From contig OY540809.1 of assembly GCA_961205875.1 (NCBI GenBank), forward strand, positions 21,712,267 to 21,776,266: a stretch of DNA of 64,000 bases, written 5' to 3'. Below the pieces are notes generated by a model. That model was not told the origin of the DNA and ran no database searches. It was given only the letters and a program-made list of their open reading frames with translations. Below, one piece after another: positions 3,335-37,308 of this stretch. Position 1 is the stretch's first letter. Each line of letters opens with the position of its first letter. The position numbers and the translations under genes were made by a program. The stretch is from Sialis fuliginosa. Taxonomy: Eukaryota; Arthropoda; Insecta; Megaloptera; Sialidae.

Positions 3335-3740
3335 TTTTATAAAATGTACGAAAAAGTAAAAAGGAAAAAATAATTTGTATTTCAGATATTTTAGCTATCA
3401 ACACATTTTCAGTCTTAGACTGTTTCAGTCATTTCAACGCTTTCAGGTCTATACAACTAAAATCTAAGTTGCTTTTTATCACGAAGTAGAAAGTGTGGAA
3501 AACCCATATGTAAGTTATGCTGAACTTTGCTTGAGTTAACTACTTAAACTTTTACTATTTACGAATGAAGAAGATTAAAAACAAATCAAATGAACGCCCC
3601 ACATTTTTATTTTTAATGCGACCTGAAATTGAAAGTGTTTTGATGACTGAAGTCTTATAGACTGAAAATGCTTTGGTAACTGAAATATCTGAAAATTAAC
3701 TTATTTTGTCATTTTTAGTGCATTTTTCGAAAAGCACGGT
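3335..3740. mobile_element. Small foldback element
   Basis: About 70 bp at 3380-3450 (TTTCAGATATTTTAGC.. CATTTTCAGTCTTAGAC) recur inverted at 3625-3695 (GACTGAAAATGC.. ACTGAAATATCTGAAA). The similarity continues more weakly outward on both sides. The spacer of about 175 bp has no coding signal. No clear target duplication was seen, so the exact ends are uncertain. Confidence 0.55.
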
Positions 3741-9590: not shown

Positions 9591-11890
9591 TTCAATATAT
9601 AGTTGGTTTATTGTAATTTTATCTTAATATTTTGTGAATAAATTATCATATAGCCTAAGAAACTAATTGAAATTGAAGTTTAGTACATAGTGCAATTAAA
9701 TTTACATAAATAACAGCTTTATTTACCAACTTGAAAATGTTTAAAATGATATTATATATATATCATTTTTAGCAAAAAAAAGATAAAATTGACGTAAATA
9801 TTTGCATCAATTTTATCTAATTTCAATAATTGTTTATTTATAATACATGGTTACGTTTTTTTATTAATATATATTTATTAATCTGCAGAAATAAAAATGA
9901 CGTAAATACTATTAAATATATATATTTTTGTTAAGTTGAATCTACCGTATAGTCAGTGTAAAAAAATACGTTATATTACGAGTATATTAAAAATTTTACA
10001 AATTTAACCAAAATAGTCATAGCGGTGGGAAAATTAGACTCTTGCTATAATTTGTGTAATTTGTAACTTTGATTACTAAATTTACAGCGCAGATATTTGT
10101 GAATTTTAAAATTTAGCTACTTTTGTCTCCAATTGTATGCCCCATTTCTCCTTAAATAGTTACATATAATGTACTTGTTAAAGTATTTCATTTTTTTAAA
10201 AATATTTTTTAAATACATATACCTAATCTGAAAGTAATGTCTATAGGTATATTTCAATATAAAAATATTTTCGCTTTAATATTAATATTAAAACGGTGTC
10301 AGTTTTTTAAATGTATACAATTACTTATTAAGACTTAAAACCAATGAAGCAGATTTATAATATATCAATAATGCAATAAAAAATAAAATAACTGATGATT
10401 ATTTTTTTGAACATTTTATAGGCTATATCAATCATTGACAAAATTATCATGAAAACAAATACACACACTAACTTTATGATTGAAACGTTACAAAACTCCA
10501 CAAAATAATGGACCTAATCAGAAATGATATATAACAAAATGACGCATGAAAATCAACAGAGAATTTCCACCGGAAGAACGCTTGTAATTGAATTCTCTTT
10601 GTGCCATATTTTTGGCGCCACTGTTTACCGATCCATCATTCGAGTTTCACACATTTGTGCTTGAGATTTATGTCCGAGAGTAAATTCGCTTTTTGCATTA
10701 TGTGTTTTCGTTCTTTGTCTTCCTTATTCTATTTCTATTACTTCGTTTTGTTGTAGGCTTGCTCTTTGATTTCTTTTTGAATCCGATCCAAAGTTTTACA
10801 CTGATTTCTGTGAATATTAAATAGGCATTATAAATGAAACGTTATGGAAATACCCCATTTAGTTTGTGATTGATTATCTTTATTTTAAAACAATATTTAA
10901 AAAGAAATATCCAAAGTTTATTCACTTTCTGTGAAGCCAGATAAATTATGTCGAGGTTTTAAACAAATCGCTAAATAATTATGCTATTTTATTATAATTA
11001 AGATTTTTTAAACTATTTAATATCAAATTTTACACTTTCTTGCAACAAAAAAATGTTTTTTGTCTGATTTTAAATATTTGATTAATGTGAATAATATTTT
11101 TGTTTTAATGGAATCACTTCCGTGTCCGATTTTCTCTGAAACTATTTGACTTAAAAATTAAAAATTCAACCCAATTATAGACGTGAAGTATAAAAAGTTG
11201 AGTTTTGATTCTGGGGGTTAATTTCAGGGGGTAAATTGGGAAATGGAAAAAAATCAATGACATCGTGTAGGCTGTCAAATGAAAGCTTATTAAAGCACGA
11301 ATTTAATAATTAATTTATTGTATTTTTTATACATTTTTTTTTAATTTTCGGGAAGACTGCTTAAAGACTTCTGCCCCCAACTTTTGTCACCAAAAAAATC
11401 GCTCAGAAAAATCTGAAAAAATAATGAACATTGAGAATTAGATGTAGACTGAGCAAAAATTATCATGATTGAAAAATTGTATTATTATAAACAATTTTAC
11501 TGTTTATTTCCTTAAACTAAATTAGTTAAAAATCACTAAATCGTAGTGAACATTCACTAATTGAAATAGTTAAAAGTATACCAGTACGAATTAGTGACTA
11601 ATCACTTCTTGAATTAGTAAACTTCTTAAGCTATGACATAATTTTAGGTTTTTATTTTATTTATTTTTAATGTAAAATCTGGAGCAAACCAAAAAATCTC
11701 ATTCATTATTTAATAAGAACAATAAATACAAATTCATCATGCATGATAATAATCTTTTAATCATTCATAACGTAACTTATGATGAATATATCAATTTTCA
11801 TAGACTAATTTAAGAAATTATTAAAATTAATGAAAAACGTTTATTGCAAACACACTAAAAATTATTTTTTCAAGCTTTGTATAAATAAAC
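9591..11890. other. AT-rich intergenic DNA
   Basis: No gene is recognisable. Around 10560-10800 the sequence is less AT-biased and holds TTTTTGGCGCCA near 10611, resembling an E2F-type palindrome, and a pyrimidine-rich stretch. I see no frame to go with it. The remainder is poly-A/T rich. Confidence 0.4.
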
Positions 11891-12097
11891 ATACCTGATT
11901 TATTGTGGCTCTTGGCTTCTGGGTGTAAGCCGCGTCGGTTTGGTCGTGTTATCGAAGAGCCCTGAAGATGTCCACTGCAATGTGTGACGAAACGTTGGCC
12001 GATAACACGACCAAACCGACGCGGCTTACACCCAGAAGCCAAGAGCCATATCAAGATCACCGCGGAAGCCTCAAGATCTGTATACCTGATTTATTGT
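11891..12097 (+). mobile_element. Penelope-like hairpin insertion with 16-bp target duplication and hammerhead-like core
   Basis: ATACCTGATTTATTGT occurs at 11891-11906 and 12082-12097, a perfect 16-bp duplication bounding a 175-bp insert. Inside, 11907-11954 and 12000-12047 are a perfect 48-bp inverted repeat. The 45-bp loop contains CTGAAGA, a stem GTC(c)AC/GTGAC and then GAAAC, the order of the hammerhead ribozyme core (CUGANGA, helix II, GAAA). A 34-bp tail follows. Penelope-like elements carry hammerhead motifs in their terminal repeats and make variable target duplications. No reverse transcriptase is present. Helix III and the cleavage triplet are not clearly formed in this copy. Confidence 0.65.
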
Positions 12098-12309
12098 TAA
12101 TAACTCAATCAAAGCAGTTGATTCGTATACATTGACAAAAGTAAGAATAAATGCCGTCACTATTATTTTAATAAAATTCAGTGTCTAATTCTAAGTGAAA
12201 TAACTACTAATTCGGTTTTAGAAAGTATAACCAATGAACACTTGATTTTAGAGATAAAGTAAACCAGATTTTTATGCAACCCTGTTATCGGTATTGATTT
12301 CTTAATTTA

Positions 12310-21094: not shown

Positions 21095-21476
21095 ATATAA
21101 CTGAAAAATATATAATAATTAAATTCAAGTTTTTGAAATTGGTTTTATTTTTTATCTACATGTCCACTGCAATGTGTGACGAAACGTTGATAACATGAAG
21201 CCAAAATCCAAATACTTAAGTGTTTTTAGTTTTTTTTTTAACTCGGTTTTATTTTTTTCTTAAATGTTTTTTATTTTTCCTATTTGAAGTCCACGGTTAG
21301 ATTCTGATAAAATTTATATTGGAGCACCTAGGACCTAGGGAGTATACTCTTTTAAACAAATAAAAATCGTTCAAATCGGTGCATGTTTATTGGAGTTATG
21401 CCTGAGCATAGATAAAATATGTATTTTGTCTAATTGAGAAACTCCTCCTTTTTTGAAGTCGGTTAATAAACTATCA
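21095..21476 (-). repeat. ACCGACTT..AAAAAAGGAGG repeat with a hammerhead-like fragment
   Basis: The right edge GGAGT..CCTCCTTTTTTGAAGTCGGT is the inverted form of ACCGACTTCAAAAAAGGAGG. The interior GTCCACGGTTAGATTCTGAT and AAAAATCGTTCAAATCGGTG match the copies at 2.3 and 58.6 kb. Near the left, about 21160-21206 repeats the loop of the 11.9-kb Penelope-like insertion (TGTCCACTGCAATGTGTGAC then GAAACGTTG). Confidence 0.65.
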
Positions 21477-37076: not shown

Positions 37077-37308
37077 ATTGGATGTCATATAACAAACAAC
37101 AGACAAAAACTATGGTTATGACTTATCAAATACAAATCCCCTAACCATAAAAATTGTAAGAGTTTAGACTTACACGTGTTTCAATAGCAATGCTATCATC
37201 ATCAGAGTCTTTAAGACTGATGATGATGATAGCATTGCTATTGAAACACGTGTAAGTCTAAACTCTTACAATTTTTATGGTTAGGGGATTTGTATTGGAT
37301 GTCATATA
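37077..37308 (-). mobile_element. Second Penelope-like hairpin insertion with 15-bp target duplication
   Basis: ATTGGATGTCATATA occurs at 37077-37091 and 37294-37308. The 202-bp insert holds a nearly perfect inverted repeat, 37132-37205 against 37217-37293, with an 11-bp loop and one extra triplet in the right arm. Each arm contains CTGATGATGATAGC, ATT, GCTATT and GAAAC, giving a CUGANGA..stem..GAAA order on both strands. A 40-bp tail lies on the left. The architecture (arm, loop, arm, tail, 15-16 bp duplication) is that of the 11.9-kb insertion, read from the minus strand. No protein is encoded. Confidence 0.65.

What the first reader, a model, noticed from the sequence alone, without database searches (positions are those of the whole stretch)
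11891..12097. Palindromic Penelope-like insertion with a hammerhead-like core in its loop
A perfect 16-bp target duplication encloses a 175-bp insert made of a perfect 48-bp inverted repeat, a 45-bp loop and a 34-bp tail. The loop has CTGAAGA, a short helix and GAAAC in hammerhead order. Penelope-like elements are known to carry hammerhead motifs in terminal repeats. A whole insertion consisting of only an inverted terminal-repeat dimer plus tail would be a minimal, possibly ribozyme-bearing, non-autonomous form.
Basis: partly seen in the sequence, partly recalled or inferred. Interest (0 to 1): 0.72.

Follow-up and report, generated by a model that had tools for sequence, protein, structure and literature searches.

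The report
Short fold-back Penelope retrotransposon insertion
A 175-letter fold-back insert turns out to be a very short copy of a Penelope-type jumping gene, probably made when both cut ends of the host DNA started copying the first stretch of the element's RNA; many related pieces in this genome record rules of that poorly understood reaction.

Summary
In detail: a 16-bp target duplication encloses a 175-bp insert with a perfect 49-bp inverted repeat, a loop and a ~33-nt tail. It is Penelope-like, but not a dimer of terminal repeats. Each arm is the start of a Penelope-like element (PLE) mRNA: 5' UTR, hammerhead-type core sharing its last A with the start ATG, and ~81 or ~114 nt of ORF. A broken parent PLE (RT, GIY-YIG-like stretch, TATA box ~30 nt upstream) is in the genome. 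The two outer ends lie 33 nt apart, the distal one at the ORF position (112-117) where a purified lizard PLE starts reverse transcription (111-118). In 40 of 42 independent two-armed copies one arm starts proximally and the other distally; in copies picked only by the core, 15 of 16. Genome matches: core 1371, tail 2366, promoter 34, RT 11. Best reading: both cut target strands prime reverse transcription on PLE mRNA; copying runs off near the RNA's 5' end, so single mRNAs give only short fold-backs. A second PLE family left the same kind of structure in this window (37078-37308). Ribozyme activity is untested and Rfam sees none.

The parts
11891..11906 (.). target site duplication, left copy
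   Evidence: 16/16 identical to 12082-12097
11907..11954 (-). left arm: antisense copy of the PLE mRNA 5' region; outer end at the proximal start site (ORF nt ~81), inner end at arm-reference position R62, fused to the other arm with 1 nt shared
11954..12081 (+). right arm: sense copy from R16 (about 10 nt short of the presumed mRNA 5' end) to the distal start site (ORF nt ~114)
   Evidence: parent sequence L070
11959..11999 (+). hammerhead-type core: stem I GCC/GGC (11959-11961/11997-11999), CUGAAGA 11962-11968, stem II with one bulge, GAAA 11989-11992, predicted cut after U11996; no loop for a stem III
   Evidence: sequence; minimum-free-energy fold of the same core has this layout; core rules and cut position recalled, not from a call
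11968..12081 (+). first 38 codons of the parent PLE ORF; start ATG 11968-11970 begins with the last A of CUGAAGA
   Evidence: MSTAMCDETLADNTTKPTRLTPRSQEPYQDHRGSLKIC; L070 has STAMCDETLADNTTKPTRLTPRSQDPYQ in the matching place, with ATA for ATG
12049..12081 (+). 'tail': stretch between proximal and distal start sites, present on one arm only
12082..12097 (.). target site duplication, right copy
37078..37308 (.). second fold-back PLE insertion, from another PLE family (D): target duplication TTGGATGTCATATA (37078-37091, 37295-37308), 80-nt inverted repeat 99% complementary; its two outer ends lie ~37-41 nt apart on the family-D reference
21160..21205 (+). decayed single-arm fragment of the same family (A), 86% identical to R30-R77

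Best explanation
It is a very short insertion of a Penelope-like retrotransposon (family A here), made by two-sided target-primed reverse transcription. Step 1 (inferred from the lizard PLE enzyme): the PLE protein cuts both strands of an AT-rich target with a stagger of ~10-17 nt. Step 2 (ends shown, order inferred): both DNA 3' ends prime reverse transcription inside PLE mRNA, one at a proximal site (ORF nt ~81-84) and one at a distal site (ORF nt ~112-117). Step 3 (inferred from where arms stop): copying runs toward the RNA 5' end, ~30 nt downstream of a TATA box, so a single mRNA can give only ~105-140 nt per arm. Step 4 (inferred from junctions): the less complete cDNA is joined, often at a few shared nucleotides, to the 5'-end side of the other, giving a head-to-head fold-back flanked by the target duplication. 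Full-length PLE copies would need multimeric RNA, which fits their tandem arrays. The hammerhead core sits in the copied part; whether it cuts RNA is unknown.
For: Outer ends (classed proximal at R103-R121, distal at R136 or beyond): of 51 two-armed places with both ends classed, 49 are one proximal + one distal, 1 both proximal, 1 both distal. Ten of these loci share one junction and count as one event: 40 of 42. In the 20 loci picked only by the core (L050-L069), 16 are two-armed and 15 of those mixed. Chance under equal independent ends: 2.6e-4 for 15 of 16, 2e-10 for 40 of 42. Exact tails form no pair within 500 bp in the 100 listed; exact proximal regions form 7 pairs in the 100 listed, all head-to-head. 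Direct repeats >=10 bp: 21 of 50 places against 20 of 2450 mismatched pairs. Parent: a promoter piece caught in L056 has 42 matches (itself included), several beside RT hits of one family; L070 holds RT (Pfam RVT_1 7.5e-13), a GIY-YIG-like stretch, TATA, hammerhead core and the unit's frame. Copy-number cliff at the presumed mRNA start: promoter 34, RT 11, core 1371, proximal region 3134, tail 2366, reversed controls 0. TATA to arm start 30 nt (L056), 31 nt (L070), 34 nt in family D. Opposite-strand neighbours are head-to-head in 5 of 5 (A), 14 of 14 (D), 7 of 7 (B), 15 of 15 (C), 22 of 24 (RT hits) (partial lists, see full report). PMC11167929: purified PLE protein cleaves and extends both strands, starts RT 111-118 nt into the ORF, and the tail lies between two start sites.
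Against: No RNA or protein data here. One of 16 core-picked two-armed copies has two proximal-class ends (L060; one of them at R121), and 4 of the 20 core-picked loci are single-armed. The genome-wide ratio of proximal regions to tails is 1.32, not the 2 that a strict rule with two full arms would give; this count cannot separate truncation, decay and single arms. 29 of 50 places show no direct repeat of 10 bp or more. The window copy stops at R16, about 10 nt short of the presumed mRNA start. Two neighbouring RT pairs are tail-to-tail. Arms of one insertion differ as much (7.4%) as arms of different insertions (8.1%), so one RNA versus two cannot be told. No family-A copy with an intact full ORF was read; GIY-YIG of family A is from motif reading only, Pfam gave no hit.
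Confidence: 0.75

Rival explanations
1. Self-priming: an antisense PLE RNA (or a finished cDNA) folds back at its 3' end and copies itself, and the resulting hairpin is inserted. This is the explanation favoured for head-to-head PLE repeats in Adineta vaga (PMC3846280, Discussion).
For: Many junctions sit at a palindrome (AAAAGTGCACTTTT in family A, AGTCTTTAAGACT in the family-D copy), which favours snap-back; in some copies the arms are identical (window 0 of 49, L067 0 of 96, L011 0 of 50, L016 0 of 50).
Against: A self-copied second arm should end where the first began or at scattered points; instead the two outer ends sit at two different fixed sites in 40 of 42 copies. Many junctions lie away from the palindrome (one arm ending between R24 and R107).
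Confidence: 0.12
2. A true non-autonomous (SINE- or retrozyme-like) family: the unit is itself transcribed, cut and perhaps circularised by its hammerhead, and mobilised in trans by PLE protein.
For: Very high copy number against 11 RT matches; hammerhead-order core in the complete arms; animal retrozymes carry type I hammerheads and PLEs are proposed as their helpers (PMC7229834, passages). Several incomplete arms stop at R62 and others at R55-R60, within a few nt of the predicted cut at R58/R59, which could reflect cut RNA.
Against: The unit lacks the promoter (34 promoter matches against 1371 cores); junctions differ between most copies, so the fold-back form is not inherited; most complete arms run past the predicted cut to the presumed mRNA start. 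The ten-locus group with one junction shares flanks where shown, so it looks like ordinary duplication.
Confidence: 0.1
3. A hairpin-type DNA transposon (MITE, Helitron or foldback element) unrelated to Penelope.
For: Perfect inverted repeat and direct target repeats.
Against: Arms of unequal and varying length, varying junctions, a reading frame that lies at the start of a PLE unit, and a parent element with RT in the genome.
Confidence: 0.02

Closest known systems
Poseidon from Anolis carolinensis (PAc), Penelope/Poseidon clade (PMC11167929; parts 1-2 of 4 and found passages read)
   Same: ORF starts at hammerhead stem II; [quoted passage not shown] 26 nt past the ATG triplet); RT starts 111-118 nt into the ORF (here distal ends at ORF nt 112-117); tail between two start sites; AC-rich stem-loop at the start; AT-rich targets; both target strands cut and extended.
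   Different: PAc is described in tandem repeats; I did not see the one-proximal-one-distal rule or short fold-back copies in the parts I read. Activity was shown there, not here.
Penelope elements of Adineta vaga, e.g. Pen2a (PMC3846280; passages and Discussion read)
   Same: Inverted pseudo-LTR at the 5' end next to the direct one; 31-bp tail optionally on one of the inverted copies; pLTR includes the first 12 codons (22 with the tail); target duplications of 8-10 bp; head-to-head most frequent.
   Different: In the cases described there the inverted piece is attached to an ORF-bearing copy or host gene; here the whole insert is only the two arms. Copy number there is very low. The authors favour self-priming on an antisense template.
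LINE-1 twin priming (start of the abstract of PMC2837659 seen; the rest recalled)
   Same: Inverted pieces flanked by target duplications; both target strands prime (recalled).
   Different: In L1 the second primer starts further upstream on the RNA, so the pieces are different parts (recalled); here both arms copy the same part from two fixed sites ~33 nt apart.
Animal retrozymes (PMC7229834; passages read)
   Same: Short, type I hammerhead, high copy number, co-occur with PLEs.
   Different: Retrozymes are small tandem repeats expressed as ~170-400-nt circular RNAs; these units are head-to-head fold-backs without a promoter.

Membership tests
Endonuclease-bearing Penelope-like elements (Penelope/Poseidon type) | Single ORF with telomerase-like RT and C-terminal GIY-YIG endonuclease (in the parent) | tested here: inconclusive
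   RT in L070: RVT_1 E 7.5e-13, 63% identity to the PLE RT probe. GIY-YIG in L070 is a motif read by eye (YIGQTGRTIGTRVQEHA); Pfam no hit. Other PLEs of the genome: family D frame 22.1 bits against cut-off 22.6; one place beside a 38%-identity RT hit is over the cut-off. The copy read is broken.
Endonuclease-bearing Penelope-like elements (Penelope/Poseidon type) | pLTR arrangement with direct and/or inverted copies, head-to-head | tested here: met
Endonuclease-bearing Penelope-like elements (Penelope/Poseidon type) | Optional ~30-40-nt tail on one end | tested here: met
   ~33 nt in the window unit
Endonuclease-bearing Penelope-like elements (Penelope/Poseidon type) | Short variable target duplications at AT-rich sites | tested here: met
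   21 of 50 at >=10 bp against 20 of 2450 control pairs; the other 29 are at or near background length
Endonuclease-bearing Penelope-like elements (Penelope/Poseidon type) | Reverse transcription starts inside the RNA, not at its 3' end | tested here: inconclusive
   Outer ends lie near the ORF start, as expected; inferred from insertion ends, not from an enzyme assay
Hammerhead ribozyme (type I, minimal PLE form) | CUGANGA ... GAAA core with stems I and II | tested here: met
   sequence and fold (z -1.67, 9 of 200 shuffles as stable); stem II has a bulge
Hammerhead ribozyme (type I, minimal PLE form) | Stem III or its replacement by an intermolecular pair | tested here: not met
   GAAAC runs straight into GUU: no loop for a stem III in family A; an intermolecular pair was not tested. 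The PAc text also names only stems I, II and loop II
Hammerhead ribozyme (type I, minimal PLE form) | Match to an Rfam hammerhead model | tested here: not met
   also no match in L070, L071, L072, L051, L057, L058, so weak evidence
Hammerhead ribozyme (type I, minimal PLE form) | Self-cleavage | not testable with these tools
   needs an RNA assay, with and without PLE protein

The most novel reading that the evidence does not exclude
PLE insertion is an asymmetric two-sided reaction: a paired enzyme uses a duplicated start signal (GAAGCC..AAGAT before both sites in family A) so that one target strand starts at the proximal and the other at the distal site. The tail is the mark of that asymmetry, in short fold-backs and, in the one array looked at, in a ~23-kb array of full-length units. 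The 5' end of the mRNA sets the product length, so single mRNAs yield dead-end fold-backs and only multimeric (or circular) RNA can spread the whole element.
Probability: 0.5. Interest if true: 0.8.

Novelty: new variant of a known kind. Interest (0 to 1): 0.62.

Why it matters
How Penelope-like elements insert is an open question. Here many small insertions in one genome act as a natural record of the reaction: two fixed start sites, one used on each side, a stop near the presumed RNA 5' end, and short-homology joins. It offers a simple reason for the 'tail', for head-to-head repeats and for tandem arrays of full copies, and predictions that the existing purified-enzyme assay can test directly.

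Tried and rejected
Rfam for a hammerhead: nothing over the window, over 11700-12300, or in the six other loci tried. Hits to microRNA models are below gathering score and lie on the palindromes; rejected. A Pfam accession recalled for PLEs was not in the library. A GIY-YIG Pfam search of the genome found only two places, so it is a poor probe for these PLEs; the RT probe worked. Looking by eye for RT hits near the 100 listed cores gave no parent; the promoter piece in L056 did. L075, fetched to see the N-terminus of a family-A ORF, is rearranged and did not show it. Whether the two arms come from one RNA or two: not decidable. The idea that a proximal-to-tail ratio of 2 would show the rule genome-wide: got 1.32, not usable. 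Literature on short or fold-back PLE copies: searches and 73 of the open library; in the listings and in the parts of papers I read I saw nothing describing the one-proximal-one-distal rule or run-off fold-backs, but most subscription papers are not held, and the 2014 PLE-hammerhead paper and a 2008 Penelope paper were not held and not read. One paper of the listing that mentions short PLE copies in schistosomes (PMC4465651) was seen as a listing only.

The family-C and family-D start sites rest on one array and one copy. Step 3 was called shown; it is inferred. Confidence went from 0.76 to 0.75.

Full report
OBSERVATION. The insert is as described. Target duplications of 16 nt lie at 11891-11906 and 12082-12097, and a perfect 49-nt inverted repeat at 11906-11954 / 12000-12048 has 45 nt between its arms. 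The window is part of contig C1 of an unnamed 392-Mb genome. The unit is repeated: 1371 matches to a 59-nt core with up to 3 mismatches, against 0 for the reversed control.

WHAT EACH ARM IS. I mapped 60 loci to one arm reference R: the window copy, 39 found by similarity to it, and 20 taken in list order from the exact core matches, leaving out the window itself and taking three neighbouring matches as one locus. Arms have two kinds of outer end: proximal, mostly R110-R113, and distal, mostly R141-R146. In most copies one arm reaches R17 or lower and the other is variable, or both reach it. The start ATG is at R30, so proximal is ORF nt ~81-84 and distal ~112-117. In CUGAAGAUG the last A of the hammerhead core is the A of the start codon. 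The window frame reads MSTAMCDETLADNTTKPTRLTPRSQEPYQDHRGSLKIC.

THE PARENT. One copy (L056) has 119 nt of other sequence between the arms. It has 42 matches in the genome, itself included, several of them beside reverse-transcriptase hits of one PLE family. L070 (C14:5380900-5384700, minus) shows the order: RT (Pfam RVT_1, E 7.5e-13), a GIY-YIG-like stretch read by eye, a stop codon TAA inside a TATA-like TATTTAA, then after 31 nt the start of the arm, the hammerhead core, the frame STAMCDETLADNTTKPTRLTPRSQDPYQ, and an end at the proximal site. That copy is 5'-truncated and broken; no intact copy of family A was read.

COPY-NUMBER CLIFF. With up to 3 mismatches and reversed controls of 0: promoter 40-mer 34, RT 40-mer 11, core 59-mer 1371, proximal-region 40-mer 3134, tail 36-mer 2366. 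The excess starts at the presumed mRNA start; its end at the distal site is seen in the copies, as no count was made beyond it. TATA to arm start is 30 nt (L056), 31 nt (L070) and 34 nt in family D (L072). That is the usual distance from a TATA box to a transcription start (recalled). So the arms look like cDNA that ran to, or near, the 5' end of the mRNA. The window copy stops about 10 nt short of it.

ONE PROXIMAL, ONE DISTAL. With proximal set at R103-R121 and distal at R136 or beyond, the 60 loci gave 63 rows. 51 are two-armed with both ends classed: 34 proximal-left/distal-right, 15 the reverse, 1 both proximal (L060), 1 both distal (L038, a nested place). 8 rows are single-armed and 4 have an end outside both classes. 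Ten loci (L016, L017, L019, L021, L023, L024, L025, L027, L031, L032) share one junction and, where shown, flanks, and count as one: 40 of 42. The 39 similarity-picked loci are biased toward the window's form. In the 20 core-picked loci, 16 are two-armed and 15 mixed; 4 are single-armed (3 distal, 1 proximal). Among the first 100 exact matches listed for each, proximal regions form 7 head-to-head pairs within 500 bp and tails none. The overall proximal-to-tail ratio is 1.32, which does not test the rule cleanly and is below the 2 of a strict rule with full arms.

TARGETS AND JUNCTIONS. Longest shared strings of >=10 bp flank 21 of 50 places, against 20 of 2450 mismatched left-right pairs (nine duplicated loci, L038 and second places in L037 and L047 left out; single-armed places kept). 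Junctions differ between most copies; arms overlap by 0-9 nt at the join or carry short inserts. Opposite-strand neighbours are head-to-head in 5 of 5 (A, first 100 listed, within 400 bp), 14 of 14 (D, first 100 listed, within 400 bp), 7 of 7 (B, from 25 of the 100 listed places, within 1 kb), 15 of 15 (C, all 61, within 8 kb) and 22 of 24 (the 142 scored RT hits, within 8 kb; overlaps C).

OTHER PLE FAMILIES IN THE SAME GENOME. Family C (896-codon open frames, arrays such as six minus then five plus units at the start of C10) has 61 matches to one core: 40 in clusters of three or more, 2 in a same-strand pair, 14 in seven head-to-head pairs 219-1443 nt apart, 5 single. Its array at C1:22116-22140 kb ends 163 nt past CTGATGA on the left and ~127 nt on the right, in an (AT)n target: two ends ~36 nt apart, the same pattern, though the sites are known from this array alone. 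Family D has 806 core matches, and one is in this window: target duplication TTGGATGTCATATA at 37078-37091 and 37295-37308, an 80-nt inverted repeat 99% complementary, and outer ends ~37-41 nt apart, again from one copy. Family B has 138 core matches.

HAMMERHEAD. The family-A core folds to stem I GCC/GGC, seven unpaired CUGAAGA, and stem II with a bulge (and a U-G pair into the GAAA), with no stem III (z -1.67, 9 of 200 shuffles as stable). Family D has a cleaner layout by eye (AGACU/AGUCU and AUAGC/GCUAU), but its single-strand fold is no better than shuffles (z 0.06), and the family-B core folded otherwise (z -0.38). Rfam finds none in the sequences tried. The position matches the PAc hammerhead, which needed protein to cut and was not needed for insertion in vitro (PMC11167929). 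I claim the motif, not activity.

MECHANISM. PAc protein cuts and extends both target strands and starts inside the RNA (PMC11167929). If both ends prime on the same kind of RNA, one at each site, and run off near the cap, the product is this fold-back. Both sites in family A follow GAAGCC..AAGAT (R97 and R127) and the proximal one lies next to an AC-rich stem-loop (z -1.11, so the fold is not strongly supported). A duplicated start signal is a plausible cause. Self-priming on antisense RNA, proposed for A. vaga (PMC3846280), explains palindromic centres but not two different fixed outer ends. Whether the two arms come from one RNA or two is open.

NOVELTY. Inverted pLTRs, tails, head-to-head order and PLE hammerheads are known. 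The stand-alone short form in this number, the one-proximal-one-distal rule and the run-off explanation were not seen in the open library (searches; listings plus parts of three papers), which lacks most subscription papers.

Noticed in passing
window 37078-37308: A second fold-back PLE insertion from a different PLE family (D) with a 14-bp target duplication and two outer ends ~37-41 nt apart.
   Followed up: yes
window 21160-21205: Decayed single-arm fragment of family A starting at the ATG.
   Followed up: partly
G000 C10:789-42274 and C3:36752371-36778956: Arrays of full-length PLEs with 896-897-codon frames lie at the start of contig C10 and the end of contig C3; chromosome-end association not tested.
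   Followed up: no
L070 (minus) about 3397-3421; also L056: In the parent PLE the apparent ORF stop codon TAA lies inside the TATA-like box that precedes the next unit's presumed mRNA start.
   Followed up: partly
arm reference R62 (window 11954): One arm stops at R62 in several independent copies (window, L009, L011, L016 group, L030, L038, L041), 3-4 nt short of the predicted hammerhead cut; unexplained.
   Followed up: no
L016, L017, L019, L021, L023, L024, L025, L027, L031, L032: Ten loci carry one and the same fold-back junction, apparently spread inside a larger repeat rather than by new insertions.
   Followed up: partly
G000 families A-D: Families differ: A and D have 1371 and 806 core matches, while the C core has 61, of which 40 lie in clusters of three or more. 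Cause unknown; RNA multimers or circles could be tested.
   Followed up: partly
L051 and L054, between the arms: Some fold-backs hold extra scrambled element pieces at the centre, as if the enzyme jumped between templates more than once.
   Followed up: no
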